In this document: piece by piece, positions 2,306 to 61,304 of the stretch
Layout of the letters: the number at the start of each line of letters is the position of its first letter
How positions within the stretch are numbered: position 1 is the first letter of the stretch
Source: an uncultured Dokdonia sp.
GTDB lineage: Bacteria > Bacteroidota > Bacteroidia > Flavobacteriales > Flavobacteriaceae
Length of the DNA: 64,000 nt
NCBI RefSeq assembly: GCF_947496725.1
Contig: NZ_CANMDS010000003.1
Coordinates: forward strand, 372,001-436,000
Reading direction: 5' to 3'
The notes under the pieces: model-generated
Told to the model about the DNA's origin: nothing
Database searches by the model: none
What the model saw: the letters and a program-made list of their open reading frames with translations, nothing else
Made by a program: the position numbers and the translations under genes

Positions 2306-2319
2306 GCTTTCGCGAAAGC
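2306..2319. repeat. Interspersed palindrome, copy 1
   Basis: GCTTTCGCGAAAGC, intergenic, 10 nt downstream of the tamL stop codon. Confidence 0.9.
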
Positions 2320-2328
2320 GTAAATTAT

Positions 2329-4599
2329 TTAAAAAGGGTAACCAATAGCAAAATTAAAGATAGGTTCATCAAATTTGAAATCCCAGCGTTCTCCCTCTGC
2401 AAGCGATGGATCGTGAAAAGGAGCAGCGAGATCAAAACGTATTACAAAGCCTTGTACATCTACACGTAGCCCAAAACCACCACCTATACCAAGCTCGTTT
2501 ATAAAATCTGAGGTAAACTTATCTTTACCCGGCAGATCTTCGTTCTCAACGCTATTCCAGATATTACCTGCATCTACAAAAAAGGCTCCTTTAAGGTAAT
2601 TAAAGATAGGAAATCTATACTCTGCATTTGCCTCTAGGCGTATGTTACCTATCTGATCAAAAAAGCTCCCACTCTCAGAGTTACCTGTTGACGTACCAGG
2701 CCCTAAAGAGCGTATTCTGAACGCTCGCACGCTGTATGGACCGCCTGCATAATATTGCTTTACAAAGGGTAATATCTCTGAGTTGCCGTATGCATACCCA
2801 TAACCAGCAAATAAGCGAGTGGCAATTTTTTGCTCCTTACCAAAGTTAAAGTGATACCTAAAATCTGCATCTATCTTTGCAAACTGTGCATACTCTAGTC
2901 CTAAAAAGGTGTTGTTTTCTGTATCCTCATTTTCTTGGCCAAGTAGACTTACCGTGTTACCAGCAATCTCAACATTTGTGTTAAGAAATACTTGATATGT
3001 ATCACTAGTATCTACCATCCCGTTGTAGGTAAAACTATAGGTAAGACCGGCGATAAATTGCTGCTCAAAACTCTGTTCTAAAAATGGATTTTCTGCAAGT
3101 ATCTCGTCAAAGGCTTCTGTGGTGTTTGACAATCTCGTGTAACTTAGTGAGATAGGGTTTATTTTATGCGTCACATATTTATTTGCATCCCAAGTGTAGC
3201 CAAAGCCTGCGTTACCAGAGAGAAGCGTGTATAGCTTTGACCTGTTTAAATAATCAAAACCTAGGGCCGTGACGGTTTTTGGGATGTTGTATTTAAAGAA
3301 ATCTGTATTAATCTTAATTGGAAAAATCACTCTAGGGAATACAAGCTCACTTGCAAGACCCAGCTCAATACTGCTCAAAGACTCGCCACCACCTACTTGC
3401 ACTTCATAACCTGCAGAGCCTGTAATATTAAGTACTTCTCCCCCTTTAAAGAGGTTTCGGTTGCTGTAGGTAAGTGCAAGGCCCGGCCCAGCAAAATTAT
3501 TAGACTTTGTAACCGCTTGTATCTCTGCTCTTATGGCTCTTTTATTAAGAGGTGATAAGTATATGTTTGCCTCTAGAATCCCTAAACTATCTGTGCGCAG
3601 GCTATCTACTTCTTCATACTGGATATTTACAAATTTATAAGCTCCTATGGTAGATAATCTTCTGGCTGTATTGCGGGAGATATCTGGATTATAAAGCGAT
3701 CCTTCTTTAAGTGTAATGTATGGCGCAAGATATTTGGGTTTAAAATAGGTCTCGTTTTGTATCATATTGAGACTATCGTAGCGGACTATATTTTGCTGTA
3801 AGGTATCCTTTAGCTCATAGTTAGGATACACATTAATTTTTTGCACTTTGTAAGGCACAATGACCTTGTTAGGAACATCTTTTTTAATCTTTAAGAACAT
3901 ATCAAAACGCTTGTTCTTATATTGATTTGTGTCAATCTCAAAAATGAGAAACGATGGGTTAAAGTTGTAATATCCCTTTCTCTTAAGCTTGTAGTCTATG
4001 CGGTCGCGCTCTTGTTTTAGATTTGAGAGGTCATAGCGCATTCCCTTTTTGAATGGCGAACTCTTAACCGTACTTATCATCTCTCTATAAATAGGCGGCG
4101 AGAGTGTGTCGAGCTGGTATGTTTCCATACGGTATGGTGTAGGCACCTTAACCATATATGCTATAGAGGCTCTTTTCTTTGTTTCGCTTTCGCGAAAGCG
4201 AGAACTCACATCACTATAAAAGAAGCCACGGTTCTCAAGTCTGTTTCTCAACAATGCCTCTACCTCAAACTCCTCTACATCTGACTGGTAAACAGGCTCC
4301 TCTCCTATTTTTTTATTGAGCCACTTATTTATCACTCCAGGATTTTCTCGCTGTGCTTTGTAGTGTATACTTAGGTTAGGATACATCCCTAAAACCTTAG
4401 TGTTAGGAGATGGTCTTAAAACACTTTCTAACTCTGCCTTGAGTAAATTTTGATTAACTATAGTACTATCTGAGTTAATTATAACCTCACCACCCGTATA
4501 TAATCGTTCTCCCTCAGTTATATACTTTTCTACACTACACGAGCAGAGTGTGATACTTACTATGACAAGGACTATGTGTATTAATTTACGGTACTGCAC
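2329..4599 (-). CDS. tamL: TamL: lipid-anchored BamA/TamA (Omp85) family outer-membrane assembly protein
   Basis: A 756-residue Omp85-family protein. It begins with a lipoprotein signal (hydrophobic stretch, then LCSC with the lipidated cysteine at about residue 22), which is the hallmark of the Bacteroidota-specific TamA variant called TamL. The middle (about 30-350) looks like POTRA domains; the C-terminal half is rich in alternating strands, with the conserved GPYSVRAFR-type segment (Omp85 lid-lock motif region) and a C-terminal FNFAIGYPF ending typical of a membrane barrel. It lies 4 nt downstream of tamB and on the same strand, so the two are surely cotranscribed and the pair should span the periplasm to insert outer-membrane proteins. 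A copy of the interspersed palindrome sits inside the gene and encodes RFRES near residue 136. Confidence 0.88.
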   Translation of the reverse strand: MQYRKLIHIVLVIVSITLCSCSVEKYITEGERLYTGGEVIINSDSTIVNQNLLKAELESVLRPSPNTKVLGMYPNLSIHYKAQRENPGVINKWLNKKIGEEPVYQSDVEEFEVEALLRNRLENRGFFYSDVSSRFRESETKKRASIAYMVKVPTPYRMETYQLDTLSPPIYREMISTVKSSPFKKGMRYDLSNLKQERDRIDYKLKRKGYYNFNPSFLIFEIDTNQYKNKRFDMFLKIKKDVPNKVIVPYKVQKINVYPNYELKDTLQQNIVRYDSLNMIQNETYFKPKYLAPYITLKEGSLYNPDISRNTARRLSTIGAYKFVNIQYEEVDSLRTDSLGILEANIYLSPLNKRAIRAEIQAVTKSNNFAGPGLALTYSNRNLFKGGEVLNITGSAGYEVQVGGGESLSSIELGLASELVFPRVIFPIKINTDFFKYNIPKTVTALGFDYLNRSKLYTLLSGNAGFGYTWDANKYVTHKINPISLSYTRLSNTTEAFDEILAENPFLEQSFEQQFIAGLTYSFTYNGMVDTSDTYQVFLNTNVEIAGNTVSLLGQENEDTENNTFLGLEYAQFAKIDADFRYHFNFGKEQKIATRLFAGYGYAYGNSEILPFVKQYYAGGPYSVRAFRIRSLGPGTSTGNSESGSFFDQIGNIRLEANAEYRFPIFNYLKGAFFVDAGNIWNSVENEDLPGKDKFTSDFINELGIGGGFGLRVDVQGFVIRFDLAAPFHDPSLAEGERWDFKFDEPIFNFAIGYPF
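4185..4200. repeat. Interspersed palindrome, copy 2 (inside tamL)
   Basis: Perfect CGCTTTCGCGAAAGCG inside the tamL coding region, read in the frame that gives RFRES. Confidence 0.92.
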
Positions 4600-4603
4600 G
4601 TGC

Positions 4604-9770: not shown

Positions 9771-9786
9771 CGCTTTCGCGAAAGCG
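9771..9786. repeat. Interspersed palindrome, copy 3
   Basis: Perfect CGCTTTCGCGAAAGCG between tamB and the type IX secreted protein, 15 nt downstream of the latter's stop. Confidence 0.92.
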
Positions 9787-13352: not shown

Positions 13353-13366
13353 GCTTTCGCGAAAGC
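13353..13366. repeat. Interspersed palindrome, copy 4
   Basis: GCTTTCGCGAAAGC in the 71-nt gap, 24 nt downstream of the ene-reductase stop. Confidence 0.9.
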
Positions 13367-19305: not shown

Positions 19306-19683
19306 TAACTCTTTTATCGTGTTTAATTATTACGTTGCGAGAATATCTCTTAACGTTCACATATTAGTCGCTATTTATTATAAGAACTTACATAAATAAC
19401 TGTGACTCTGCTTGTAGTATGCTTTGCCGTATATTGTGATTATTGTAAAGATAGGAATTAAAAGTGGTTTTTACGCTTTCGCGAAAGCGTATTTATTCTT
19501 ACAACACACTACTACGTTGTATTAAGAGCTTATTTACATAACATATAGAAGTCTTTTGGGGCCGTAAAGTCAAAAGTTAAGACAGCCCACTATTTTAACA
19601 AGTCTGTTATCTTTTTCTTAGTGGCGGGTTAAAATAGTCTTGAAAGGTGGTACATAGTCGTAACTTTAATAAAAAAGAACATT
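19306..19683. other. Divergent intergenic region with palindrome and inverted repeat
   Basis: Some 380 nt between two divergent genes. It holds a copy of the interspersed palindrome (19474-19489) and an 11-bp inverted repeat, ACTATTTTAAC at 19589-19599 and GTTAAAATAGT at 19628-19638, 28 nt apart, just upstream of the next gene. I see no ORF or RNA gene. Confidence 0.6.
19474..19489. repeat. Interspersed palindrome, copy 5
   Basis: Perfect CGCTTTCGCGAAAGCG, extended to 18 bp by A and T, between divergent genes. Confidence 0.92.
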
Positions 19684-23103: not shown

Positions 23104-23116
23104 CTTTCGCGAAAGC
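23104..23116. repeat. Interspersed palindrome, copy 6
   Basis: Core CTTTCGCGAAAG at 23104-23115; the left flank is CC instead of CG, so this copy is only the 12-bp core. It lies between a lipoprotein stop (42 nt) and the ABC transporter start. Confidence 0.85.
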
Positions 23117-25582: not shown

Positions 25583-26119
25583 GTGAAAACAATAAACAAC
25601 ATACCAAAGGATAGAGGCTACACCACTCCAGAAAACTATTTTAAAGATAGTAAAGAGCGGTTATTAAGTCAGATAGCACTAGATGAAAAGTTGCATAATA
25701 CTGTTGTTCCAGCTTTTGAAGTACCAGAAGATTATTTTGATACGAGTAAGGAACGTATTTTGGATACGCTTTCGCGAAAGCGTAATGAAGACGCAACTAT
25801 AAATCTAAATGCTGAAGCTAGCCAGACTAAGGTTATTAGTTTAAGAAAGTACCTCTACCCTATTGCGGGTATTGCGGCAGCACTACTTATAATGGTAAGT
25901 ATTTTTTGGACCCAAGTACAAAGTTCTTCAAGTGAAGATCTCAATTCTATTGCAGCTTATTTTGATGATGACGCTGCAGACCTAGAAGGCATAGAATTTG
26001 CAGAGTGGCTCACAGAAGATGATATAAACGATCTTCAAAATGATCTCGCACTAGATGAGTCTATTATTATAGATTATCTAGATGAGCGCGTAGATGGTTT
26101 TGATTTATACATAGATTAA
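25583..26119 (+). CDS. Membrane protein of the ECF operon, possible anti-sigma factor
   Basis: A 178-residue protein starting with GTG, 34 nt after the sigma gene. The N-terminal half is cytoplasmic with two similar PE[ND]YF segments (TPENYFKDSKERLL at about 15, VPEDYFDTSKERIL at about 47), a membrane helix at about 92-108 (YPIAGIAAALLIMVSIF), and an acidic outer part of 65 residues. This layout (cytoplasmic part, one helix, periplasmic part) fits a membrane-bound anti-sigma factor, but no zinc motif is present. The interspersed palindrome is inside the gene and encodes LSRKR next to the second repeat unit. Confidence 0.65.
   Translation: MKTINNIPKDRGYTTPENYFKDSKERLLSQIALDEKLHNTVVPAFEVPEDYFDTSKERILDTLSRKRNEDATINLNAEASQTKVISLRKYLYPIAGIAAALLIMVSIFWTQVQSSSSEDLNSIAAYFDDDAADLEGIEFAEWLTEDDINDLQNDLALDESIIIDYLDERVDGFDLYID
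25765..25784. repeat. Interspersed palindrome, copy 7 (inside the ECF operon membrane protein)
   Basis: Perfect 20-bp palindrome TACGCTTTCGCGAAAGCGTA, in the frame that encodes TLSRKR. Confidence 0.92.
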
Positions 26120-27778: not shown

Positions 27779-28990
27779 ATGAAATTACACAGAAATCTAG
27801 TCTTTGCAGCAGTAGATGCATTGGGAATGATATTTAATGATGGAGAACAAGCAGATAAAGTACTGCGCAAGGTTCTCAAATTTGATAAACGCTGGGGATC
27901 AAGAGATCGCAGTTTTATTGCAGAAACAGTTTATGACATTGTAAGATGGAAACGTTTATACTCTGAGATTGCAGAGGTAAAAGCACCATATAGTAGACCT
28001 AATTTATTTAGGCTATTTGCAGTGTGGGCCACACTACGTGGTATAGAGGTGCCAGATTGGAAACAAATGGAGCCTATCCCTACTCGCCGTATTAAAGGAC
28101 GTTTTGATGAATTATCAAAAATTAGAAAATACAAAGAGTCTATTCCAGACTGGATGGATGAGATGGGTGAAAAAGCCCTCGGAAAAAAATGGGGAGCAGA
28201 GCTAGCAGCACTTAACACGCAAGCTCAGGTTGTATTAAGGGCAAATTCCCTTAAAGCTACGGTAAAAGAAGTGCGCAATACACTTGCAGACCAAGATATA
28301 GATACTAAAATACTTGATAACCACCCAGATGCACTCGAACTTGTAGAGCGTAAAAATGTTTTTACATCTGAAGCGTTTAAAAATGGATTTTTTGAGGTAC
28401 AAGATGCTTCATCTCAAAAGGTTGCTCGTATGCTAGAGGTAGAACCTGGTATGCGTGTGGTAGATGCTTGTGCTGGAGCTGGTGGTAAGACACTTCACCT
28501 TGCTGCTCTTATGGAAAACAAAGGGCAAATAATAGCAATGGATATTTATGCTGGTAAGCTTAAAGAGCTCAAAAGAAGATCTAAGCGTGCAGGAGCACAT
28601 AATATCGAGACAAGAGAAATTACCTCTACTAAAGTCTTTAAAAAGCTATACAACTCTGCAGATCGTGTTCTTATAGATGCACCTTGTACAGGTCTTGGTA
28701 CTATAAAACGTAACCCAGATTTAAAATGGAAATTACAACCAGACTTTGTAGATAAGGTAGTACAGCGTCAAGCAGACTTACTCCAGAGCTACAGCAAGAT
28801 TTTAAAAGAGGGTGGTAAGATGGTGTATGCAACTTGTTCTATTCTTCCTAGAGAAAATCAAGAACAAGTGCAAGCATTTTTGGCTACAGAGCAGGGTCAG
28901 AAATTTCAATTAGAAAAAGAAGAGACAGTAAGCCCAGCAAAATCTGGATATGATGGATTTTATATGGCTTTGCTTTCGCGAAAGCAATAA
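27779..28990 (+). CDS. RsmB/NOP-family RNA (cytosine-5) methyltransferase
   Basis: A 403-residue methyltransferase. SAM-binding motif I is VVDACAGAGGKTLHLA (about residue 223), the catalytic cysteine motifs are DAPCTGLGTI (Cys of motif IV) and YATCSILPRENQEQ (Cys of motif VI). The N-terminal 150 residues are an RsmB-like (NusB-like) helical domain. It makes 5-methylcytosine in rRNA or tRNA; the target is not clear. Its last five codons are built from the interspersed palindrome (ending ALLSRKQ), so the repeat has formed or replaced the C-terminus. The endonuclease gene starts 10 nt after the stop. Confidence 0.88.
   Translation: MKLHRNLVFAAVDALGMIFNDGEQADKVLRKVLKFDKRWGSRDRSFIAETVYDIVRWKRLYSEIAEVKAPYSRPNLFRLFAVWATLRGIEVPDWKQMEPIPTRRIKGRFDELSKIRKYKESIPDWMDEMGEKALGKKWGAELAALNTQAQVVLRANSLKATVKEVRNTLADQDIDTKILDNHPDALELVERKNVFTSEAFKNGFFEVQDASSQKVARMLEVEPGMRVVDACAGAGGKTLHLAALMENKGQIIAMDIYAGKLKELKRRSKRAGAHNIETREITSTKVFKKLYNSADRVLIDAPCTGLGTIKRNPDLKWKLQPDFVDKVVQRQADLLQSYSKILKEGGKMVYATCSILPRENQEQVQAFLATEQGQKFQLEKEETVSPAKSGYDGFYMALLSRKQ
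28971..28986. repeat. Interspersed palindrome, copy 8 (C-terminus of the RsmB-like gene)
   Basis: TGCTTTCGCGAAAGCA, palindromic over 16 bp with TG/CA flanks. It encodes LSRK just before the stop codon. Confidence 0.92.
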
Positions 28991-33588: not shown

Positions 33589-36500
33589 ATGATCCACTTT
33601 TTTGGTAACCCTCAGAGCACTGTGTATGCGGTGCAAACCACACAAGACTTTACACAAGAAGATATTGCTAAGCTTGTATGGCTTTTTGGCAACTCCCCAC
33701 AAATTGAAGCGTCTACTATTGACGCTTTTTTTATTGGCCCTCGTGCAGCTATGATTACTCCGTGGAGTACTAATGCGGTTGAGATTACTCAAAATATGGG
33801 TATTACGGGTATTGTGAGAATAGAAGAGTTCGCTTTCGCGAAAGCGGAAACAACTTTTGACCCAATGATATCTCAACAGTTTGAATCATTAGACCAAACT
33901 ATTTTTGATATTGAGGTTACACCAGAAGAAATTCTCCCTATAACAGACATTGCCGCATATAATGAAAAAGAAGGGCTATCGCTAAGTGATGAGGAAGTGG
34001 CATATCTAGAAGGTGTAGCTGCCAAAATAGGAAGACCGCTCACAGACTCTGAAGTTTTTGGTTTTAGCCAAGTAAATTCTGAGCACTGTCGCCACAAGAT
34101 TTTTAATGGAACTTTTGTGATAGACGGAGAAGAAATGCCATCTTCACTATTTAAGCTTATTAAAAAGACCTCTGCCGAAAATCCGAATACGATTGTCTCT
34201 GCTTATAAAGATAATGTTGCATTTATAGAAGGGCCTAAGGCTACTCAGTTTGCACCAAATACGGCAGACAAACCAGATTACTACACAGAAAAAGAGTTTG
34301 AATCTGTGATTTCTATTAAAGCTGAGACTCACAACTTCCCTACTACGGTTGAGCCGTTTAATGGTGCTGCTACAGGTTCTGGTGGTGAGATAAGAGATAG
34401 ACTAGCAGGTGGTAAAGGATCTTTACCACTAGCAGGTACAGCTGTGTATATGACGCCGTACTCAAGGCTTGAGCAAGACCGCCCTTGGGAACAGGGTATG
34501 CAAGAAAGAAAGTGGCTTTATCAAAACCCAATAGACCTTCTTATAAAAGCATCAAATGGAGCTTCAGACTTTGGAAATAAATTTGGACAACCACTTATAG
34601 TTGGTTCAGTTCTCACTTTTGAGCATCAAGAAGATGGGCAACGTCTAGGTTATGACAAAGTAATTATGCAAGCCGGAGGTATAGGTTACGGAAAGAAAGA
34701 ACAGGCATTAAAGGATACACCCCAAGATGGTGACAAAATTGTAATACTAGGTGGTGAGAATTATAGAATAGGTATGGGTGGTGCTGCAGTATCAAGTGCA
34801 GATACAGGCGCTCTAGACTCTGGTATTGAACTTAATGCCGTACAACGCTCTAATCCAGAAATGCAAAAGCGTGCTGCAAATGCTGTACGTGGTATGGTGG
34901 AGAGTGATGTAAACCCTATTGTATCTATTCACGATCACGGTGCTGGTGGACACTTAAACTGTCTGTCAGAACTTGTAGAAGATACTGGGGGTCTTATAGA
35001 TTTAGATAAACTTCCTGTAGGTGACCCTACCCTATCTGCAAAAGAGATTATAGGTAATGAGTCTCAAGAGCGTATGGGACTAGTTATAGGAAAGGAAGAC
35101 ATTGATACACTACAACGTATAGCAGACCGTGAGAGATCTCCTATGTATGAAGTAGGTGACGTGACGACAGATCACAGGTTTACATTTAAAAGTGCTACCA
35201 CAGGAAAAAGTCCTATGGATTTACACCTAGATGATATGTTTGGTAGTTCGCCTAAAACAGTAATGACAGATGTTACGGTAGCACGTAATTATAAAGAGCC
35301 TACTTATGAGTTAGGTAAGATACACGATTATTTAGAGCAGGTCTTGCAGCTAGAAGCAGTAGCTTGTAAAGACTGGCTTACTAACAAAGTAGATCGCTGT
35401 GTAGGTGGTAGAGTAGCAAAGCAACAATGTGTTGGACCGTTACAACTTCCTTTAAATAATGTAGGTGTGATGGCTATGGATTTTAAGAGTACAAAGGGTA
35501 TTGCAACCTCTATAGGTCATTCACCAGTATCTGGACTTATAAACCCAGTAGCTGGTAGTAAAAACAGTATCGCAGAGTCACTTACTAATATAGTTTGGGC
35601 ACCACTTACAGATGGATTACAGTCTGTGAGTCTATCTGCAAACTGGATGTGGCCTTGTAAAAATGAAGGAGAAGATGCTAGACTTTACAAAGCTGTAGAA
35701 GCTATATCTGAGATGGCTATTAACCTAGGTATAAACGTACCTACAGGTAAAGACAGTCTCTCTATGAAGCAAAAATATCCAGATGGAGATGTAATTGCTC
35801 CAGGTACCGTTGTGATAAGTGCAGCTGGTAGCTGTAATAATATCAATCAAGTAGTAGAACCAGTACTTCAAAAGGATGGTGGCGCCATTTATTACATCAA
35901 TATGTCTGGTGATAGTCATAAACTAGGTGGTTCTAGTTTTGCACAAGTATGCCATAGCATAGGTAATGAAGCTCCTACTGTTGTAAGTGATGATAACTTT
36001 AAAACAGCTTTTAACACATTACAGGAGTTAATAAAAGATAATAAAATACAAGCAGGACACGATGTAGCTAGTGGTGGTCTTATCACAACACTTCTTGAAC
36101 TTTGCTTTGCAGATACAAATCTTGGTGCAAGTCTTGATCTCACAGAAATAGGAGAACAAGATCTTATAAAATTACTCTTCTCAGAAAATGCTGGTGTTGT
36201 CTTTCAGGCAGATGCTGGTGTAGAAGATATTCTTACAGCAAATAATGTAGCCTTCTTTAAAATAGGAAATGTAACAGATACCGCAGAGCTTGTGATTAAA
36301 AGCAATGGTGTCGAGATGGGTCTTAACGTGAGTTCACTACGTGATACTTGGTTTAAAACTTCATTCTTACTAGATAATAAGCAAACAGCAAGTGGACTTG
36401 CTCAAGATCGTTTTGACAACTATAAAAATCAAGCGCTAGATTATACATTTCCTGCACACTTTACAGGTAAAAAACCAGTACTTGACACAAGTAAACCTAG

Positions 36501-37248
36501 ACCTAAAGCCGCTATACTAAGAGAGAAAGGAAGTAACTCTGAGCGTGAAATGGCAAATGCAATGTACCTAGCTGGTTTTGATGTTAAGGATGTGCATATG
36601 ACAGACTTAATAGAAGGACGTGAGACGCTAGAAGACATCCAGTTTTTAGGAGCTGTAGGTGGTTTTTCAAATAGTGATGTGCTTGGATCTGCAAAGGGTT
36701 GGGCAGGTGCTATAAAATATAATGAGAAGGCAAATAAGGCCATAAAGAATTTCTTTGCTCGTGAGGATACGCTCTCAGTAGGTATTTGTAATGGTTGCCA
36801 GTTGTTTTTAGAACTTGACCTTATCAATCCAGAGCATAAGCAACTTGCAAAGATGTCTCATAATGATAGTCACAAGCACGAGAGCAATTTTACCTCTGTA
36901 AAAATTGAAAAGAACAATAGTGTAATGTTATCTTCACTAGAAGGTACTACGCTAGGCGTATGGATATCACACGGAGAAGGTAAGTTTAACTTACCTATGG
37001 GCAAAGATGCTTATGATATAGTAGCAACCTACGGTTATGAAGGGTACCCTGCAAATCCTAATGGATCTGACTTTAATACCGCAATGATTTGTGATACTAC
37101 AGGACGTCACCTTGCAACTATGCCGCACATAGAGCGATCTACTTTCCCTTGGAACTGGGCACACTACCCTGCTCAACATACAGACGAGGTAAGTCCTTGG
37201 CTAGAGGCTTTTGTAAATGCAAGACTTTGGGTAGAGAAGAATAAATAA
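33589..37248 (+). CDS. purL: Phosphoribosylformylglycinamidine synthase (FGAM synthase, large form)
   Basis: A 1219-residue purine biosynthesis enzyme that combines an N-terminal domain, two AIRS-like ATP-binding halves and a C-terminal glutamine amidotransferase. Motifs: FSQVNSEHCRHKIFNG, ETHNFPTTVEPFNGAATGSG and GGEIRDRL for the FGAM centre; GICNGCQLFLELDL for the glutaminase with its Cys; ISHGEGKF and later HIERSTFPWNWAH for the His and Glu parts. It converts FGAR, glutamine and ATP to FGAM. The length is normal. The interspersed palindrome is in the N-terminal domain and encodes AFAKA in frame. Confidence 0.95.
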   Translation: MIHFFGNPQSTVYAVQTTQDFTQEDIAKLVWLFGNSPQIEASTIDAFFIGPRAAMITPWSTNAVEITQNMGITGIVRIEEFAFAKAETTFDPMISQQFESLDQTIFDIEVTPEEILPITDIAAYNEKEGLSLSDEEVAYLEGVAAKIGRPLTDSEVFGFSQVNSEHCRHKIFNGTFVIDGEEMPSSLFKLIKKTSAENPNTIVSAYKDNVAFIEGPKATQFAPNTADKPDYYTEKEFESVISIKAETHNFPTTVEPFNGAATGSGGEIRDRLAGGKGSLPLAGTAVYMTPYSRLEQDRPWEQGMQERKWLYQNPIDLLIKASNGASDFGNKFGQPLIVGSVLTFEHQEDGQRLGYDKVIMQAGGIGYGKKEQALKDTPQDGDKIVILGGENYRIGMGGAAVSSADTGALDSGIELNAVQRSNPEMQKRAANAVRGMVESDVNPIVSIHDHGAGGHLNCLSELVEDTGGLIDLDKLPVGDPTLSAKEIIGNESQERMGLVIGKEDIDTLQRIADRERSPMYEVGDVTTDHRFTFKSATTGKSPMDLHLDDMFGSSPKTVMTDVTVARNYKEPTYELGKIHDYLEQVLQLEAVACKDWLTNKVDRCVGGRVAKQQCVGPLQLPLNNVGVMAMDFKSTKGIATSIGHSPVSGLINPVAGSKNSIAESLTNIVWAPLTDGLQSVSLSANWMWPCKNEGEDARLYKAVEAISEMAINLGINVPTGKDSLSMKQKYPDGDVIAPGTVVISAAGSCNNINQVVEPVLQKDGGAIYYINMSGDSHKLGGSSFAQVCHSIGNEAPTVVSDDNFKTAFNTLQELIKDNKIQAGHDVASGGLITTLLELCFADTNLGASLDLTEIGEQDLIKLLFSENAGVVFQADAGVEDILTANNVAFFKIGNVTDTAELVIKSNGVEMGLNVSSLRDTWFKTSFLLDNKQTASGLAQDRFDNYKNQALDYTFPAHFTGKKPVLDTSKPRPKAAILREKGSNSEREMANAMYLAGFDVKDVHMTDLIEGRETLEDIQFLGAVGGFSNSDVLGSAKGWAGAIKYNEKANKAIKNFFAREDTLSVGICNGCQLFLELDLINPEHKQLAKMSHNDSHKHESNFTSVKIEKNNSVMLSSLEGTTLGVWISHGEGKFNLPMGKDAYDIVATYGYEGYPANPNGSDFNTAMICDTTGRHLATMPHIERSTFPWNWAHYPAQHTDEVSPWLEAFVNARLWVEKNK
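33831..33846. repeat. Interspersed palindrome, copy 9 (inside purL)
   Basis: Perfect CGCTTTCGCGAAAGCG, read as FAFAKAE near residue 85 of PurL. Confidence 0.92.
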
Positions 37249-37312: not shown

Positions 37313-37326
37313 GCTTTCGCGAAAGC
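37313..37326. repeat. Interspersed palindrome, copy 10
   Basis: GCTTTCGCGAAAGC between the purL terminator and the Crp-like gene. Confidence 0.9.
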
Positions 37327-38950: not shown

Positions 38951-41329
38951 ATGAAAAAACTACTTACGCTGCTTGTTGTTATAACATTTTACGCTTTCGC
39001 GAAAGCGCAACAAACCCCTTTAACATATCATAAAGCAAAAATATATCTATCTAGCAGCCACACGCTTCAAAATCTTAAAAATCTAGATGTAGCCGTAGAC
39101 CACGTAGTCCATAAGGAAGGTACTTTTGTAATCTCAGACTTCTCTACAGATGAGATTAATCTGGCTAGACAAAGTGGTTATAAAGTGGACGTTTTAATAA
39201 ATGATGTAGCCTCATTTTATAAATCTCAAAGCAATAGATCACAATCTCAACAACAAAACACAAGCTGCTCAACAAGTGAAACTAGTTACCCTACCCCAGT
39301 AAATTTTAATCAAGGTTCTATGGGAGGATATCTCACCTACCAAGAGTTTCTGGAAGAAGTAGATGCAATGGCGGCTCAGTACCCAGAACTTATCACTGCA
39401 AAGTCACCTATAAGTGATTTTCTTACAGAAGGCGAGCCAGATACCTCTGTAACACCATCCATAGGTTCTAACCCTATATATTGGCTTAAAATAAGTGATA
39501 ACCCTAACGTAGATGAAACCGAACCAGAAATACTATATACGGCTATACATCACGCACGTGAGCCTATGTCACTTATGCAGCTTGTTTATTATATGTGGTA
39601 TTTATTAGAAAATTATGAAGATAATCTAGAAGTAAAAGCGATTGTAGATAATACTGAGCTCTATTTTGTACCTGTGATTAACCCAGATGGTTATTTATAT
39701 AATCAAGTGACCGATCCTAATGGAGGTGGACTATGGCGTAAAAATAGAAAAAATGGCAACGGTGTAGATAACAATAGAAATTATGATTACCATATAAATG
39801 GAGATCCTAATAATGGCTCTTGGGGAGGCCCAGGATCATCTACAAATCCGGGATCTAACACTTATCACGGTACAGGGCCATTTTCTGAGATAGAAAATCA
39901 GGCAATAAAATGGTTTGTAGAGCAACATAACTTTGTGCTGGCACTTAATAATCACACCTTTGGTGAGTTGTTGTATTATCCATTTGGCTATGCAGATGTC
40001 GCAACGGCAGATGATGCACTTTATCAAGGTCTAGGTGCGCAACTCACATCTATAAACGGTTATACTCCTATACGAGACAATCCATTTGCTGGTGAGAGTG
40101 ATGATTTTATGTATGGTACAGTAGGTACGCACGATAAGATTTTTGCCTTCACTCCAGAGATAGGGACTTCTTTCTGGCCACCAGCAAGTGACATTATATC
40201 TATTTCACAAGAGATGATGTTTATGAACCTTACGGCTGCACAGGTGGTAACAAACTATGGTGCTCTTGTAGAAACTACAAATAGCTTTGTAGGAGAAAAT
40301 ACGTCTCTCTCGACCTCTTTTGATTTAAAACGATTAGGAGTTGCAAGTACTGGGGACTTTATCGTAAGCTTTAGCCCTGTATCAAGCAATATTACTAGTA
40401 ATGGTAGTGCGGTAAATTTTGATGCGCTAGCGCCATTAGAAACTGCTAGCGGAACAATCACTTATACACTAGACCCTACTATTGAGATAGGTGATAGTAT
40501 AGAATTTGATCTCGTGGTTAACAATGGGTTTTATGATAATAATATCCGTGTAAGTAAAGTATATGGAGCGTTAACTAATGTATTTCTTGATAATGGAGAT
40601 ACAATAGATAGTTATGAGAATACTAGCTGGGGAGTAACAAGTTCCACTTTTGTATCACCTTCATCATCTATTACAGATTCACCTTCTGGTAATTATAGCG
40701 ATAATGAAAATAGTAGTATCACACTTACAGACCCCATAGATCTTACTCAAAGCACAGCCGCAGCTATATCATTTTATGCAAAGTGGGATATTGAAAATAC
40801 TTGGGATTATGTACAATTTGAAATATCTACAGATAATGGTGTCAGCTGGCAACCACAATGTGGTAATTTTACAAGTGCAGGAACTAATGCACAACCAGTA
40901 GGAGAGCCTTTATATGATGGGGTACAGAATGACTGGGTATTTGAGGAAATTAATTTAAGTGATTATATAGGAGAGGTTATCTTGGCCAGATTCAGACTTG
41001 TTTCTGATGGAGCTGTAACAAGAGATGGCTTTTATTATGATGACCTTAATTTTTCTGTAATTACAGATGAGGCGCTGCAGGTAGAAAATGTAAATTTTAA
41101 AGCAGGTTTTGAGTTATTTCCTAATCCTGTAAAGAACCTATTAACAGTACGTACTTCTCTAGGTTCATATACAAGTAGTGTTTATAATGTCTTAGGTCAA
41201 GAAGTTTCAAACGCTACAGTACAGCAAGGAAATGCGTTTATAGATTATACTGGTCTACCAGATGGAATTTACTTTTTGAGACTAGAAACAGAGGAAAACA
41301 GTGCAATTTTTAAAATTGTTAAGAATTAA
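38951..41329 (+). CDS. Secreted M14 zinc carboxypeptidase with type IX sorting domain
   Basis: A 792-residue exported metallopeptidase. The signal is MKKLLTLLVVITFYAFAKAQ, whose end (YAFAKAQ) is encoded by a copy of the interspersed palindrome. The peptidase domain (about 120-440) has the zinc motif HHAREPMS (HxxE), a later His in LNNHTFGELLYYPFGY, and the catalytic Glu in FTPEIGTSFWP. After this come Ig/MAM-like modules and a C-terminal type A sorting domain: ELFPNPVKNLLTV, VYNVLGQEVSN and GIYFLRLETEENSAIFK. It should be released or attached outside the cell and remove C-terminal residues from peptides. A TATCTTTA box lies about 30 nt upstream. Confidence 0.9.
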   Translation: MKKLLTLLVVITFYAFAKAQQTPLTYHKAKIYLSSSHTLQNLKNLDVAVDHVVHKEGTFVISDFSTDEINLARQSGYKVDVLINDVASFYKSQSNRSQSQQQNTSCSTSETSYPTPVNFNQGSMGGYLTYQEFLEEVDAMAAQYPELITAKSPISDFLTEGEPDTSVTPSIGSNPIYWLKISDNPNVDETEPEILYTAIHHAREPMSLMQLVYYMWYLLENYEDNLEVKAIVDNTELYFVPVINPDGYLYNQVTDPNGGGLWRKNRKNGNGVDNNRNYDYHINGDPNNGSWGGPGSSTNPGSNTYHGTGPFSEIENQAIKWFVEQHNFVLALNNHTFGELLYYPFGYADVATADDALYQGLGAQLTSINGYTPIRDNPFAGESDDFMYGTVGTHDKIFAFTPEIGTSFWPPASDIISISQEMMFMNLTAAQVVTNYGALVETTNSFVGENTSLSTSFDLKRLGVASTGDFIVSFSPVSSNITSNGSAVNFDALAPLETASGTITYTLDPTIEIGDSIEFDLVVNNGFYDNNIRVSKVYGALTNVFLDNGDTIDSYENTSWGVTSSTFVSPSSSITDSPSGNYSDNENSSITLTDPIDLTQSTAAAISFYAKWDIENTWDYVQFEISTDNGVSWQPQCGNFTSAGTNAQPVGEPLYDGVQNDWVFEEINLSDYIGEVILARFRLVSDGAVTRDGFYYDDLNFSVITDEALQVENVNFKAGFELFPNPVKNLLTVRTSLGSYTSSVYNVLGQEVSNATVQQGNAFIDYTGLPDGIYFLRLETEENSAIFKIVKN
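38992..39007. repeat. Interspersed palindrome, copy 11 (in the carboxypeptidase signal peptide)
   Basis: Perfect CGCTTTCGCGAAAGCG encoding AFAKA at the signal-peptidase site. Confidence 0.92.
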
Positions 41330-43730: not shown

Positions 43731-43774
43731 AAAAAATATCTTGCAATTTCATATAGTTTTATGCGGTAGAATCA

Positions 43775-43790
43775 CGCTTTCGCGAAAGCG
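43775..43790. repeat. Interspersed palindrome, copy 12
   Basis: Perfect CGCTTTCGCGAAAGCG extended to 18 bp, 44 nt after the methyltransferase-like gene's stop. Confidence 0.92.
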
Positions 43791-43867
43791 TAAAAAAACC
43801 ACGCTCAGGCATTAATATTAACAATCTCTTATAGTAGTACTCACTTTCTAATTAAGCCTTAAAGCGG

Positions 43868-47472: not shown

Positions 47473-47494
47473 TTACGCTTTCGCGAAAGCGTAA
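47473..47494. repeat. Interspersed palindrome, copy 13 (longest, 22 bp)
   Basis: Perfect CGCTTTCGCGAAAGCG with TTA and TAA on the sides, 22 bp in total, beginning 6 nt after the LOG gene stop. Confidence 0.93.
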
Positions 47495-53103: not shown

Positions 53104-53117
53104 GCTTTCGCGAAAGC
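53104..53117. repeat. Interspersed palindrome, copy 14
   Basis: GCTTTCGCGAAAGC between convergent genes, 19 nt beyond the stop of the HD-domain gene. Confidence 0.9.
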
Positions 53118-56504: not shown

Positions 56505-56522
56505 GAGAATTTTATAAAAACT

Positions 56523-57272
56523 ATGCGTTACGGTATCTGCCAGCTTAGTATTGTCCCAATGCGTGCCGAACCTTCGGACCCTAGCGAACTTGTAAACCAG
56601 GTTCTCTATGGTGAACATTTTAAAGTTGTAGAGCAACGTAAAAAATGGAGCCGCATTAAGCTTTCACACGATAAGTATGAGGGCTGGATAGATAACAAGC
56701 AATATATAGAAATAAGTGAGGATGAATACGCTTTCGCGAAAGCGCAACCCATCACCCTCACTACAGATCCCGTACAGTTTATAACCACAGAGCACAAGCA
56801 ACTACTTACCGTGGTTCTAGGAGCTGCTGTAGAAAATATAAGCTTGCTTAAGGATACCTATGAAGGAAACAGCTTCACAGGAAAAACCAGTAAGGAACAG
56901 CTTATAGAAACAGCTATGCTTTATTTAAAATCTCCTTACCTATGGGGTGGTAGAACTCCTTTTGGGATAGACTGTAGTGGTTTTACACAAATGGTTTATA
57001 GACTTAATGGTTATAGTCTTAAAAGAGATGCATCACAGCAAGCTACGCAAGGCGAAGCTTTAAGTTTTATAGAAGAGAGTGAACCAGGAGATCTTGCATT
57101 TTTTGATAATGCAGAGGGTGCTATAACACACGTAGGTATTATTATGGAAGATAATTATATCATACACGCTCACGGTGAAGTACGTATAGATAGATTAGAT
57201 CACTCTGGTATATATAATGTGCATAAACGTACACATACACATAAACTAAGAGTTATCAAGAAGATCATCTAA
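56523..57272 (+). CDS. NlpC/P60 (C40) peptidoglycan endopeptidase with SH3 domain
   Basis: A 249-residue protein. Residues about 1-60 are an SH3-like domain (RYGICQLSIVPMRAEPSDPS), the peptidase domain (about 120-249) has PYLWGGRTPFGIDCSGFTQM with the catalytic Cys, THVGIIMEDNYIIHAHG with His, and a DR pair after it. It cleaves cell-wall peptides. No signal peptide is seen, which is common among Bacteroidota relatives; it may act in recycling or be exported otherwise. The interspersed palindrome lies in the linker between SH3 domains, encoding YAFAKAQ. Starts 18 nt after thiolase. Confidence 0.88.
   Translation: MRYGICQLSIVPMRAEPSDPSELVNQVLYGEHFKVVEQRKKWSRIKLSHDKYEGWIDNKQYIEISEDEYAFAKAQPITLTTDPVQFITTEHKQLLTVVLGAAVENISLLKDTYEGNSFTGKTSKEQLIETAMLYLKSPYLWGGRTPFGIDCSGFTQMVYRLNGYSLKRDASQQATQGEALSFIEESEPGDLAFFDNAEGAITHVGIIMEDNYIIHAHGEVRIDRLDHSGIYNVHKRTHTHKLRVIKKII
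56729..56744. repeat. Interspersed palindrome, copy 15 (inside the NlpC/P60 gene)
   Basis: Perfect CGCTTTCGCGAAAGCG, in frame for YAFAKAQ, the same peptide as in the carboxypeptidase signal. Confidence 0.92.
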
Positions 57273-57310: not shown

Positions 57311-57336
57311 ACCCGCCAGTAAGGCGGGTTTTTTTA
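57311..57336. terminator. Terminator between convergent genes
   Basis: ACCCGCC/GGCGGGT hairpin with A run before and T run after, serving the NlpC/P60 gene and the TPR gene. Confidence 0.88.
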
Positions 57337-57353
57337 TGGATATGAAACAATGA

Positions 57354-58601
57354 TTAGTTCATTGCGTCAATTTTTGCTTTCATAGCGTCTGCTTTATTTG
57401 TATCCTCAAGTACTTGATACAGGTTAAGTAGGTTGTTTGCTATCTCTGCATTATCTGGTTTAAGCTCTAATACTTTCTCCATATAAGTTACCGCTTTTCT
57501 GATATTTGCTTTACGCTCAACTTTAAGAGATTCATACTTATCAAAATCTGCATTTGAAGTACCTAAGCTGTTCATCTGATCTACAAATGTTGCATCTTTT
57601 CTTAAAATAAGTGCTCCAAGGTTATTATATGCATTTGCATAACCAGCATCTAGTTCAATTGCTTTATTGTAGTATTCAACAGCTGTCGCGTCATCACCTT
57701 GTTGATCTGCAGTTACACCTAGGTTATAGTGAAGTTCTGCATTGTTAGGATCAAGTTGTAATACTTTTTCAATGATAGCTCTGTACTCATCTTTCTTATC
57801 CATCTTTAAATAGATATTAGATTTTGAAGTAAGAAGCTTTACATCGTTTGGCTTTTTCTCTAGTGCAGTATCTAGCATTGCAAGTGCTTTGTCATTCTGA
57901 TCTTGAAAAGAGTAGATGCTGATTAAATATTCAGTAATAACATTTTCTTTAGACTCGCTCAACCTTTCGCTAGGCTTTACATATTCCTTAGAAAGAACTA
58001 CGATATCTCTTTCTTGTTTGTTATCAAACTTCTTTTCTTCTCCAGAAGCAGCATTTACTGCATAAAACTCATTTACTTGACCAGTATAACCGGTAGCCAT
58101 TAGATCTTCAAAGATAGCAGCAGCTTTATCATACTCTTTTGAGTTAAGATAGTTTGAAGCTGCATAGTATTGATAATCTTTATTATCATTACTAAAAGCA
58201 TACGCTTTTTCTAGCTTTGCTCCAGCATCGCTAAATTTGTCTGTGTTTTGATCTTGTACTGCACTATTTACAAGTGCTGCTACAACGTTAGATAGTCCAG
58301 TTTGTGCTTGACCATCCATTTTTGTTCCTACAAGAGCCTTAAATGCTTCACCAGCCTTAGTTAAGTCTGCTACATTTTTATTATCAACTCCTAAAAATGC
58401 TTGAGCTTTTAAAAGCATAAACTTGCTTTTAGTCTTATCGTCCATCTGGCCTAAAAGAGCATCTGCTGCTCCTACTAAAGACTTAGCCTCTCCATAGCTA
58501 CCAGATTTGATAGCTTTTTCGATTGCTTTTACTTCCTTCTTTTGTGCAAAAGCCATAGACGTTACGGCAAATGCTATTGCAAATAAAATTTTAGTTTTCA
58601 T
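57354..58601 (-). CDS. Tetratricopeptide-repeat protein, exported
   Basis: A 415-residue protein with signal MKTKILFAIAFAVTSMAFAQ. TPR units are clear in the C-terminal half: NAELHYNLGVTADQQGDDAT and YYNKAIELDAGYANAYNNLG, then VTYMEKVLELKPDNAEIANN. The first half has less regular helical repeats. It lies downstream of gyrA on the same strand, 63 nt away, and is probably cotranscribed. It likely acts as a periplasmic scaffold; no enzyme motif is visible. Confidence 0.88.
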   Translation of the reverse strand: MKTKILFAIAFAVTSMAFAQKKEVKAIEKAIKSGSYGEAKSLVGAADALLGQMDDKTKSKFMLLKAQAFLGVDNKNVADLTKAGEAFKALVGTKMDGQAQTGLSNVVAALVNSAVQDQNTDKFSDAGAKLEKAYAFSNDNKDYQYYAASNYLNSKEYDKAAAIFEDLMATGYTGQVNEFYAVNAASGEEKKFDNKQERDIVVLSKEYVKPSERLSESKENVITEYLISIYSFQDQNDKALAMLDTALEKKPNDVKLLTSKSNIYLKMDKKDEYRAIIEKVLQLDPNNAELHYNLGVTADQQGDDATAVEYYNKAIELDAGYANAYNNLGALILRKDATFVDQMNSLGTSNADFDKYESLKVERKANIRKAVTYMEKVLELKPDNAEIANNLLNLYQVLEDTNKADAMKAKIDAMN

Positions 58602-58664
58602 TATAAGTGTTTAATTAATATAAGGGTTTCAAAATTACTCTTTTTTTTCTCAACCCTTATGTGT

Positions 58665-61211
58665 CTATTCTTCTTCTTCAGAAGAGTTTTCGTTTTGGGT
58701 TGTTTCTGAAGCAGTTGTCCCTCCTTCTACTGGAGTTCCATCTACTGTGTCATCTTCATCGTCTATATCGTCCTCATCACTTTTTACTTTCGCGACAGCG
58801 GCAATAGAATCGTTTCCTTTAAGGTTAATAAGTCGTACTCCTTGTGTTGCACGTCCCATAACTCTTAGTGAAGCTACTTCCATTCTTATAGCGATACCTG
58901 ATTTATTGATAATCATAAGATCATCTGCATCAGTAACGTTTTTAATAGATACTAGTTCTCCAGTCTTTTCGGTAACAGAGATTGTTTTTACTCCTTTACC
59001 TCCACGGTTTGTAATTCTGTAATCTTCAAGACTACTGCGCTTACCATACCCTTTTTCTGAAACAACTAGGATATTACTTTCTGTATCGTTTACAGACACC
59101 ATTCCTACTACTTCATCTTCATCATTAGCAAGAGTTATGCCACGAACACCAGAGGCGTTTCTTCCCATAGGTCTTGTCTTACTTTCTTCAAAGCGTATTG
59201 CCTTACCAGATTTAAGCGCAAGCATCACTTGACTCTCTCCTGTTGTAAGCTTTGCAGACAGTAGCTCATCATTGTCCTTAATAGTAATCGCGTTGATACC
59301 GTTAGTACGAGGACGTGAGTATTGCTCTAGTGCTGTTTTCTTCACTTGTCCTTTTTTGGTCGCCATAATGATGTAGTGATTATTTATATAATCTTCATCT
59401 TTAAGGTCTCCTGTACATACAAATGCTTTTACCTCGTCATCTTGCTCTATATTAATAAGGTTCTGGATAGCTCTACCTTTTGAAGTCTTACTTCCTTCTG
59501 GTATTTCAAATACACGCATCCAGAAACATTTACCCTTTTGTGTAAAGAATAACATATACTGGTGGTTAGTTCCTACAAATAGATGCTCTAAGAAATCTTC
59601 ATTACGAGTAGTAGATGCTTTTGTACCTACTCCTCCTCTATTTTGAGTTTTGTATTCTGTAAGTGATGTACGTTTTATGTAACCTGCATTTGAGATAGTA
59701 ATCACTACCTTTTTATCTGGAATAAGGTCTGTGATGCTTACATCACCTCCAGCATACTCTATAATAGAGCGACGCTCATCTCCATACTTATCTTTTATTT
59801 CTTGAAGCTCTTCTCTAATGATAGACATACGACGCTCCTTCTTTGCAAGGATATCTTTTAAGTCTTCTATAGTCTTCATTATCTCTTCGTACTCACTACG
59901 TAGTTTGTCTTGCTCTAGACCTGTAAGCTGGCGTAAACGCATCTCTACGATAGCCTTTGCTTGAATCTCTGAGAGTTTAAAACGCTCTATTAAGTTTTGT
60001 CTCGCCTCATCACCATTTGCACTTGCACGTATGATGGCTATTACTTCATCTATATTATCTGAAGCAATGATAAGACCTTCTAGTATGTGAGCACGAGCTT
60101 CTGCTTTTTTAAGCTCAAACTCTGTTCTTCTCACTACTACCTCGTGGCGGTGCTCAACAAAGTGGTGTATCATATCCTTAAGATTTAACATCTCAGGACG
60201 CCCGTTTACAAGAGCAATGTTATTTACACTAAATGATGATTGTAGTGCCGTGTACTTATATAACTTGTTAAGTACGATATTTGGAATAGCATCACGTTTT
60301 ATAACATAAACGATACGCATACCATTACGGTCTGACTCGTCACGTATGGCAGATATACCCTCGATTTTCTTATCGTTGATCATATCGGCCGTTTTCTTAA
60401 TCATATCAGCCTTATTGACTTGATATGGTATTTCGGTCACAATGATACACTCTCTACCTTTTACTTCTTCAAACTCTGCCTTTGCGCGCATTACAACACG
60501 ACCACGCCCTGTTTTAAAAGCCTCACGTACTCCGTCATAACCGTAAATAGTTCCTCCGGTAGGAAAATCTGGAGCCTTTACGTGCTCCATAAGTTCATCT
60601 ATAGTAACGTCATTATTATCTATGTAAGCGTGTATACCGTCTACAACTTCAGAAAGGTTGTGTGGCGGCATATTAGTCGCCATACCCACAGCAATACCAG
60701 ATGCACCATTTATAAGTAACCCTGGTACACGTGTAGGTAATACGGTAGGTTCTTTAAGCGTATCATCAAAGTTAAGTTGGTGATCTACTGTGTCTTTTTC
60801 AATATCTGCAAGCATATCTTCAGATATCTTGCGCATTCTAGCCTCGGTATAACGCATTGCTGCTGGGCTATCACCATCTACAGACCCAAAGTTACCTTGA
60901 CCATCTACAAGCATATAACGTAAACTCCACTCTTGAGCCATACGTACCATTGCATCATATACAGAGGTGTCACCGTGTGGGTGATACTTACCTAGTACCT
61001 CTCCTACTATTCTTGCAGATTTTTTGTGAGCACCACTCGCTCGTATTCCTAACTCGTGCATTCCGTAAAGAACACGACGGTGTACTGGTTTTAGACCATC
61101 ACGCACGTCAGGTAGTGCACGTGATACGATAACTGACATCGAGTAATCGATGTAAGCAGATTTCATTTCATCTTCAATATTAATCGAGATCAGCTTTTCT
61201 CCTTCAGCCAT
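58665..61211 (-). CDS. gyrA: DNA gyrase subunit A
   Basis: An 848-residue type II topoisomerase subunit. The catalytic Tyr121 is in [12 protein letters not shown]; the fluoroquinolone-determining segment [13 protein letters not shown] is at about 74-86. The C-terminal domain is a beta-pinwheel with repeats like NRGGVGTKA and [10 protein letters not shown]. The second resembles the GyrA-box, but the expected glutamine before the Arg is absent, as TN comes before RGGKG. The C-terminal tail is acidic. With GyrB it introduces negative supercoils. A decayed palindrome (AVAKV) lies near the C-terminus. Divergent from clpC. Confidence 0.95.
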
Positions 61212-61288
61212 ATATAAATTGATTAGATTTTAAGTCAAATTTTTTACAATTAGCAATGTAACCATTTTCGTTATTTTTTATGGGGTTA

Positions 61289-61304
61289 CGCTTTCGCGAA
61301 AGCG
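61289..61304. repeat. Interspersed palindrome, copy 16
   Basis: Perfect CGCTTTCGCGAAAGCG, extended to 20 bp (61287-61306), between the divergent gyrA and clpC genes. Confidence 0.92.

What the first reader, a model, noticed from the sequence alone, without database searches (positions are those of the whole stretch)
2306..61304. A perfect 12-22 bp palindrome is repeated 16 times across the window
Seen in sequence: CTTTCGCGAAAG, usually as CGCTTTCGCGAAAGCG, has cores starting at 2307, 4187, 9773, 13354, 19476, 23104, 25769, 28973, 33833, 37314, 38994, 43777, 47478, 53105, 56731 and 61291. A given 12-mer is expected about 0.004 times in 64 kb, so this is a strong excess in an AT-rich genome. 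It is dyad-symmetric with no loop, so it suits a dimeric DNA-binding protein more than an RNA hairpin. Candidate roles: chromosome-organising sites (as Noc or matS sites elsewhere, different sequences), an uptake or recognition sequence, a methylation target (the centre TCGCGA), or a self-spreading palindromic element like HIP1 in cyanobacteria. None of these is demonstrated here.
Basis: partly seen in the sequence, partly recalled or inferred. Interest (0 to 1): 0.85.

Follow-up and report, generated by a model that had tools for sequence, protein, structure and literature searches.

The report
Evenly spaced genome-wide DNA palindrome, Dokdonia
Marine bacteria of the genus Dokdonia, and a few relatives, carry the same short mirror-like DNA word about every three and a half thousand letters in the stretches examined, kept almost unchanged by evolution, so it is very likely a recognition signal for a protein that has not been identified.

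Summary
All 16 cores are present. The genome (Dokdonia, by published chromosome lengths of relatives) holds 937 copies in 3.29 Mb, reversed control 0. All 18 sampled Dokdonia genomes have 383-937. In samples of 299 family and 396 class genomes, only two more genera reach hundreds.

Sites are evenly spaced (CV 0.45, random 1.06, in 464 kb) and have C-poor 5' arms. In 356 kb aligned to D. donghaensis DSW-1, 104 of 108 cores are intact, the other four differing by one substitution. Island copies in low-copy hosts are partly degraded. Some phages carry sites; relatives at 20-58% capsid identity do not. The 12-mer is in no paper of the library searched.

Rejected: terminator, RNA stem, recent insertion element, extra ParB. 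Chi is unlikely. Best reading (0.42): a protein-recognition signal working like the DNA uptake sequences of Neisseria and Haemophilus. Rivals: chromosome-organising site; methylation-linked palindrome like HIP1. The reader protein was not found, and uptake was not tested.

The parts
2306..2319 (.). site 1, 14-bp perfect palindrome, intergenic
4184..4201 (.). site 2, 18-bp palindrome, coding (ORF 2329-4386 with ATG start, 2329-4599 with GTG start, - strand)
9771..9786 (.). site 3, 16-bp palindrome, intergenic; core kept in G001 (DSW-1)
13353..13366 (.). site 4, 14-bp palindrome, intergenic; kept in G001
19472..19491 (.). site 5, 20-bp palindrome, intergenic; kept in G001
23104..23115 (.). site 6, 12-bp palindrome, intergenic; core kept in G001, G004, G005, G007 (4 of 4 aligned)
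25765..25784 (.). site 7, 20-bp palindrome; called intergenic by the ATG-only caller, inside a GTG-start ORF 25583-26119; core kept in 4 of 5 aligned relatives
28970..28987 (.). site 8, 18-bp palindrome with TTGC..GCAA ends, last codons of an RsmB/F-like methyltransferase ORF 27779-28990 +
33831..33846 (.). site 9, 16-bp palindrome, coding in a purL-type gene (PF18076, PF13507), reads AFAKA
37313..37326 (.). site 10, 14-bp palindrome, downstream of purL
38992..39007 (.). site 11, 16-bp palindrome, 5' end of ORF 38951-41329 +
43774..43791 (.). site 12, 18-bp palindrome, intergenic
47473..47494 (.). site 13, 22-bp palindrome, intergenic
53104..53117 (.). site 14, 14-bp palindrome between convergent ORFs
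56729..56744 (.). site 15, 16-bp palindrome, coding, ORF 56523-57272 +; core kept in 4 of 4 aligned relatives
61287..61306 (.). site 16, 20-bp palindrome, intergenic; lies in a tract 90-98% identical to G005, against 68-84% in the other aligned kb bins

Best explanation
It is a genome-wide cis-acting recognition signal: a 12-bp palindromic core (CTTTCGCGAAAG, best as the 16-mer CGCTTTCGCGAAAGCG) with C-poor, T/G-rich 5' arms of about 25 nt on each strand, read as DNA by a sequence-specific, probably dimeric, protein that these hosts have and most relatives lack. Shown: number, evenness, strict conservation, turnover by substitution, partial degradation of island copies in low-copy hosts, presence in some phages. 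The use I think most likely is recognition of own DNA for uptake and homologous recombination, i.e. it works like the DUS/USS of Neisseria and Pasteurellaceae: DNA with a site is preferentially taken in or recombined, so sites spread into permissive places about once per recombining fragment, are restored when lost, and also accumulate in phages and islands that stay with the host.
For: Density, mixed coding/intergenic placement and preference for permissive places. Even spacing: CV 0.452 over 132 gaps against 1.062 +- 0.087 for random placement keeping coding/intergenic numbers, 2000 draws, minimum 0.795; even spacing of USS is reported by Karlin et al., as quoted in PMC1939737 (passage). Conservation near that of DUS: 104 of 108 cores intact at 93.8% background identity and 21 of 33 aligned cases intact in more distant Dokdonia (my count of the listing, G001 and G009 left out); PMC2397512 reports >90% exact conservation within N. 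meningitidis and 71% across all genomes at about 85% average identity (passages). In-place replacement without a matching net insertion at larger distance in purL, as described for many DUS. Genus-specific flanks around one core (25 sites of G206, 42 of G256). Some phages carry sites while 30 of 35 loci with a related capsid gene, all those at 20-58% identity, have none; PMC6776037 reports that temperate Pasteurellaceae phages accumulate USS (passages). ComEC is in 21 of 21 genomes; Riemerella columbina, placed in Flavobacteriaceae by its authors, is naturally competent and prefers its own DNA (PMC7965970, abstract and passages).
Against: No DUS/USS described in what I read is a palindrome (PMC1939737 says so for DUES). 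The type IV pilus/type II secretion ATPase family PF00437 reaches its cut-off in only 3 of 7 high-copy genomes tested and not in the window's own, so the known kind of receptor, a minor pilin, is unlikely there. Competence of Dokdonia was not found in what I read and is untested; the same Riemerella paper found Flavobacterium johnsoniae not competent. Exact sites outnumber one-mismatch forms 135 to 18, sharper than a USS (438 to 947 in A. pleuropneumoniae, PMC1939737; word lengths differ). No rise of identity near sites; near-identical tracts were too few to test. [quoted passage not shown] Phages: a temperate life is shown only for L196, which has an integrase gene.
Confidence: 0.42

Rival explanations
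1. Chromosome-organising site: a dimeric nucleoid-associated protein binds the palindrome about every 3.5 kb and helps fold or insulate the chromosome, without regional bias.
For: Palindrome and symmetric arms suit a dimer; spacing is far more even than random, longest gap 7,926 against a random mean of 19,938; no positional trend in 20 samples of the DSW-1 chromosome, ori and ter not located; strong constraint on each core; sharp sequence requirement.
Against: No reader found. A second ParB is absent in 7 of 7 high-copy genomes, and no helix-turn-helix change is shared by them. Two separate lineages (Dokdonia with G206; and g11) share the exact core, hard to start from a genome without sites. 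Phages and mobile islands carry sites at similar spacing.
Confidence: 0.25
2. HIP-type palindrome: the site exists because of a solitary DNA methyltransferase (and repair linked to it) that recognises the inner part such as TCGCGA, as proposed for HIP1 in cyanobacteria.
For: Palindrome changing by substitution, in genes and between them. One-base deviations are biased to the first and last base, 9 of 18, as reported for HIP1 (PMC4390886, abstract). Alternate HIPs with cognate methyltransferases are reported there.
Against: TCGCGA outside the sites is neither avoided nor enriched (34 seen, 32.3 expected), and C-poor arms of about 25 nt are not explained by a short methylation target. A motif scan of the held DNA (own 464 kb, DSW-1 796 kb, 17 loci of other Dokdonia, 200 kb each of G206 and G256) printed 7 hits: one clear m5C methyltransferase, in DSW-1, in a site-free 8.2-kb stretch beside a GHKL-ATPase gene and so probably an accessory restriction system; one DPPY-type hit (L268:2662-4137) that I did not follow; five unconvincing. 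Most of each genome was not scanned.
Confidence: 0.2
3. Chi-like recombination signal: AddAB (or another helicase-nuclease) switches at the site; a palindrome works from both sides and T/G-rich arms would favour RecA loading.
For: AddB-type nuclease family PF12705 in 21 of 21 genomes; T/G-rich 5' arms on both strands.
Against: E. coli Chi spacing in 300 kb is random (79 sites, CV 1.00) and its flanks are not skewed. Known Chi sites are short and not palindromic (recalled). AddB is shared by low-copy genomes, and its sequenced part shows no residue fixed in the high-copy genomes only. No identity peak at sites.
Confidence: 0.06
4. Selfish insertion element (REP/RAYT type) or hairpin terminator.
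For: Repeated palindrome, intergenic enrichment, convergent gaps preferred (16 sites in 44 gaps).
Against: 5 of 5 differences between the two closest genomes compared are single substitutions, none an insertion. T-rich DNA precedes and A-rich DNA follows the palindrome on each strand, the reverse of an intrinsic terminator. 76 of 135 sites are in genes.
Confidence: 0.02

Closest known systems
DNA uptake sequences (DUS of Neisseriaceae, USS of Pasteurellaceae)
   Same: about 10-12 bp word in hundreds of copies, coding and intergenic, in permissive places, highly conserved in place, flank dialects, carried by some phages
   Different: palindromic; C-poor arms on both sides; far fewer one-mismatch copies; no pilus/secretion ATPase over cut-off in the window's own genome; uptake role untested; other phylum
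HIP1, highly iterated palindrome of cyanobacteria
   Same: palindrome, hundreds of copies per Mb (937 in 3.29 Mb here; 300-2700 per Mb in PMC4390886), changing by substitution, in genes too, deviations at the outer bases
   Different: 12-16 bp instead of 8-10; symmetric arms; no cognate methyltransferase identified; found in Bacteroidota
Noc/NBS, SlmA/SBS, MatP/matS, ParB/parS (recalled)
   Same: palindromic sites of about 12-16 bp for dimeric chromosome proteins
   Different: about 930 copies rather than tens, no positional trend seen, no second ParB; sequence differs from parS in half-site spacing (parS recalled)
Chi (GCTGGTGG, E. coli)
   Same: about one copy per 3.7 kb in the 300 kb examined, over-represented
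   Different: Chi is asymmetric and randomly spaced

Membership tests
DUS/USS | short word present in hundreds of copies, far above expectation | tested here: met
   937 copies, reversed control 0
DUS/USS | sites conserved in place, changing by point mutation, placed in permissive DNA | tested here: met
DUS/USS | host-adapted temperate phages carry the word | tested here: inconclusive
   phages carry it and 30 of 35 capsid-related loci do not; hosts of the contigs are unknown and an integrase was seen in one contig only
DUS/USS | many single-mismatch intermediates | tested here: inconclusive
   18 one-mismatch to 135 exact in the own sample, 4 to 42 in G256, 18 to 25 in G206; composition expects 0.75 in the own sample, so an excess exists but it is small
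DUS/USS | type IV pilus machinery with a minor-pilin receptor | tested here: not met
   only the ATPase family PF00437 was sought: over cut-off in 3 of 7 high-copy genomes, not in G000, G001, G027, G206
DUS/USS | the word raises DNA uptake | not testable with these tools
   needs experiment
HIP | palindrome, highly iterated, changing by substitution | tested here: met
HIP | solitary methyltransferase specific for the inner palindrome | not tested
   only a motif scan of held DNA; no methylation data
Noc/ParB | extra ParB-like protein, or a specificity helix changed in the hosts | tested here: not met
   one ParB in 7 of 7; no helix-turn-helix change shared by the high-copy genomes, g11 alone differs at two residues
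Chi | asymmetric word read by RecBCD/AddAB | tested here: not met
   the word is a palindrome; RecC absent in 21 of 21, AddB-type nuclease in 21 of 21; spacing CV 0.45 against 1.00 for Chi
REP/RAYT or other insertion element | new copies arise by insertion | tested here: not met
   0 of 5 differences are insertions
intrinsic terminator | hairpin followed by T run, at gene ends | tested here: not met
   T-rich before, A-rich after; 76 of 135 in genes

The most novel reading that the evidence does not exclude
A previously undescribed kind of chromosome system: a palindromic site placed at near-regular intervals of about 3.5 kb around the chromosome, and in phages and islands that live there, bound by an unknown dimeric protein that organises or licenses all DNA in the cell. 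It would, to my knowledge, be the first site-specific, evenly spaced, genome-wide binding grid described in bacteria.
Probability: 0.27. Interest if true: 0.92.

Novelty: new variant of a known kind. Interest (0 to 1): 0.76.

Why it matters
A word of 12-16 letters kept intact at hundreds of places across a genus means a strong, unknown selective force in a well-studied group of proteorhodopsin bacteria. If it is an uptake signal, it is the first palindromic one I know of, in a group where natural competence is little known, and it could help explain gene exchange among Dokdonia species. If it is an organising site, it shows that a bacterial chromosome can carry an even grid of binding sites. 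Either way the sites may mark which phages and islands have lived in these hosts, and the question can be tested in culturable strains with published closed genomes.

Tried and rejected
Terminator and RNA stem: arms run T-rich then A-rich, and symmetric coupling is positive only at -2 and -3 and weakly at -15, -17, -18 (z 2.0-2.4). Insertion element: no insertion differences. Extra ParB or shared ParB change: none (one search compared 20 of the 21 genomes, G093 left out). RecC: absent in 21 of 21. AddB: 5 columns separate high- from low-copy genomes against 0-3 in 12 random groupings, none fixed; the loci cover only part of AddB and the groupings are not matched for relatedness, so I draw nothing from it. 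Recombination tracts: too few (2 or fewer of 103 sites inside them). Other words in 80 named relatives, loci of 5-24 kb around purL: none carries this core; with at least two G/C, the only 10-bp palindrome seen four times was AAAAGCTTTT in L106. Hidden orientation of sites: EM gain 159 against 119-134 in 10 arm shuffles, weak, not interpreted. Canonical parS in held DNA: no copy within two mismatches, not pursued. Methyltransferase as reader. Literature: the 12-mer anywhere, 0 papers; its inner 10-mer, 10 papers with unrelated titles, not opened; Dokdonia plus palindrom, 5 papers, listing only; (20 of 86 shown), listings only, nothing on this word in titles or abstract starts; the PRO95 genome paper searched for six terms, nothing relevant.

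Counting notes: the 296-site arm profile pools own, DSW-1 and other Dokdonia DNA, so orthologous sites are not independent. Two of the 20 DSW-1 samples were chosen because they looked site-poor. Coding/intergenic calls use an ATG-only ORF caller. The 104 of 108 count is conditioned on sites intact in the own genome; about half of the 6.2% divergence is the fair yardstick, giving roughly ten-fold constraint. The 21 of 33 count is likewise conditioned on window sites; the same call lists 11 sites of relatives that the window lacks, all at one purL place. Island comparison: by my count 24 shared and 28 one-sided sites in 35 pairwise rows that are not independent; some one-sided cases may be gains, and this share of shared sites is not far below that in distant Dokdonia, so it is weak evidence for decay. 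In one search the row L051 is a wrong ORF and is disregarded.
Full report
OBSERVATION. The 12-mer CTTTCGCGAAAG occurs 16 times in the window at exactly the stated places, with none in 100 dinucleotide shuffles. The perfect palindromes run from 12 to 22 bp, and 10 of 16 hold the 16-mer. The window is C3:372001-436000 of a 3.29-Mb genome in 121 contigs that holds 937 copies; the pattern read backwards gives 0.

ORGANISM. GC is 0.375 in the window.

WHO HAS IT. All 18 Dokdonia genomes searched have 383 to 937 copies; a 3.29-Mb and a 5.5-Mb genome have 937 and 933, so the count does not simply follow genome size. In 299 family genomes, hundreds are found only in Dokdonia, in two genomes of genus g11 (586, 685) and in one of genus g190 (445); all others have 21 or fewer. 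In 396 class genomes nothing but the own genome exceeds 10. In a PurL tree (one gene, quick method) Dokdonia and g190 fall in one clade with the low-copy genera g160 (G176) and g144 (G160), whereas g11 lies far away beside the low-copy genus g43.

ANATOMY. In 464 kb of the own genome there are 135 exact copies, 18 with one mismatch and 25 with two; the reversed word gives 0, 4 and 31. Nine of the 18 one-mismatch copies differ at the first or last base. Beyond the core, -1 is G and -2 is C in most sites; further out the 5' side of each strand is poor in C and rich in T and G, fading by about 25-30 nt (296 pooled sites). This holds for coding and intergenic sites alike (C 0.096 and 0.075 against 0.197 in the genome). 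Symmetric coupling of the arms is clear at -2 (z 4.3), weak at -3 and at -15, -17, -18 (z 2.0-2.4), and negative at -5 to -9. G256 (g11) and G206 (g190) share core and arms but differ at -3 and -4; G206 has 18 one-mismatch copies to 25 exact ones, mostly with one half-site altered.

PLACEMENT. By a crude gene caller 76 of 135 sites are coding and 59 intergenic in DNA that is 88% coding; gaps between convergent genes are preferred (16 sites for 44 gaps, against 20 for 105, 12 for 73 and 11 for 65 in the other orientations). In genes of at least 150 codons the frame reading xFAKx is commonest (39 of 67). Spacing is strikingly even: CV 0.452 over 132 gaps, longest gap 7,926; random placement with the same coding/intergenic numbers gives CV 1.062 +- 0.087, smallest 0.795, and a mean longest gap of 19,938. 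In DSW-1 three contiguous stretches give CV 0.56, 0.47 and 0.78; the last includes part of a region with two giant ORFs of 4,431 and 5,060 codons and almost no sites. In G256 two stretches give 0.56 and 0.39. Twenty 20-kb samples of the DSW-1 chromosome hold 2 to 8 sites each without a visible positional trend; ori and ter were not located.

EVOLUTION. Between the own genome and DSW-1, 356 kb align at 93.8%. Of 108 own cores 104 are intact; the four others and the one DSW-1-only site differ by a single substitution. Core identity is 99.7%, flanks about 93.5%; corrected for conditioning on the own genome this is about ten-fold constraint. Identity does not rise near sites. In more distant Dokdonia, 21 of 33 aligned cases are intact (counted from the listing, G001 and G009 left out). 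Within purL one codon position carries the site (AFAKAF) in 11 of 14 Dokdonia rows and, as AFAKA, in G206, G256 and G027, while the own genome, G001, G009 and the correctly aligned low-copy rows have other codons there. Of 8 alignable coding sites of G206 and G256 (40 tried), 2 meet a Dokdonia site at the same place, one of them in another reading frame, 1 meets a copy with one extra base, and 2 are the purL position. In low-copy G160, one of two testable dispersed sites sits at a Dokdonia site position, so the clade's ancestor may have had the system and G160 may keep relics.

HOST DEPENDENCE. Several low-copy genomes with 4 to 21 copies have them clustered, for example 19 of 19 in one 78-kb stretch of G093, in islands with multicopper oxidase, ACR_tran-type efflux and outer-membrane efflux genes; in others, such as G160, part of them are dispersed. 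A pair 933 bp apart recurs in several genera. Between island copies in low-copy hosts I count 24 shared and 28 one-sided sites, several of the latter one or two substitutions from the core. This is consistent with loss of maintenance outside high-copy hosts, but gains cannot be excluded and the share kept is not far below that in distant Dokdonia.

PHAGES. The 16-mer occurs in 41 stretches of the viral contig collection. Several belong to real phages: portal and terminase in L211, tape measure, capsid and portal in L221, integrase and tape measure in L196. Three phage lineages about 64-75% identical in aligned DNA share one exact site in all three comparisons and others in pairs, and differ at further ones. 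Of 35 loci with a related capsid protein, the five at 99-100% identity carry sites and the 30 at 20-58% have none. Published USS profiles behave alike: phages lysogenising Pasteurellaceae accumulate USS, large and likely lytic ones do not (PMC6776037, passages).

READER. Not found. ComEC is in 21 of 21 genomes tested, AddB-type nuclease in 21 of 21, RecC in none. The pilus/secretion ATPase passes its cut-off in G008, G017, G256 and the low-copy G229 only. Each of 7 high-copy genomes has exactly one ParB; in Dokdonia and G206 its helix-turn-helix is of the low-copy form, in g11 two residues differ, and one column elsewhere separates the groups without a shared residue.

VERDICT. The pattern needs a sequence-specific reader acting on DNA. 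I commit to a signal that works like DUS/USS at 0.42, mainly from the match in conservation level, placement, dialects and phage carriage with published DUS/USS data (PMC2397512, PMC1939737, PMC6776037; passages read). I do not file it as a member: the pilus feature was tested and not met, and uptake was not tested. The palindrome and the evenness keep an organising protein at 0.25 and a methylation-linked HIP-type origin at 0.20. As a kind it is a new variant of the highly iterated short genomic words, to my knowledge the first described in Bacteroidota; searches for it in print are.

Noticed in passing
window 58000-62000: This stretch is 90-98% identical to Dokdonia G005 (PRO95 by length) while the other aligned kb bins are 68-84%: recent gene exchange between species; it holds site 16.
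   Followed up: partly
L260-L261 (G001 C1:285001-323000): Two giant ORFs of 4,431 and 5,060 codons with duplicated neighbours (653- and 318-codon ORFs), GC skew about -0.19, almost free of sites.
   Followed up: partly
L277:11089-15661: DSW-1 m5C DNA methyltransferase gene followed by a GHKL-ATPase ORF and an ORF without Pfam match, in an 8.2-kb site-free gap: probably an accessory restriction system.
   Followed up: partly
window 33589-37248 (purL): Several Dokdonia species (G003, G004, G005, G007, G008) have about 25 extra codons in PurL directly beside the palindrome.
   Followed up: no
L356-L358 (G093 C3:30001-90000): Island with multicopper oxidase, a Fic-domain protein and a MmeI/Eco57I-like restriction-methylase; sites at chromosome-like density.
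   Followed up: partly
L394, L395, L396 (viral contigs): Phage contigs whose portal-type protein is distantly related to Winogradskyella phage Peternella_1 (38.5% identity, searched with the L211 protein) carry the palindrome at partly conserved places; possibly phages of these hosts.
   Followed up: partly
L268:2662-4137: DSW-1 ORF with a DPPY-type methyltransferase motif.
   Followed up: no
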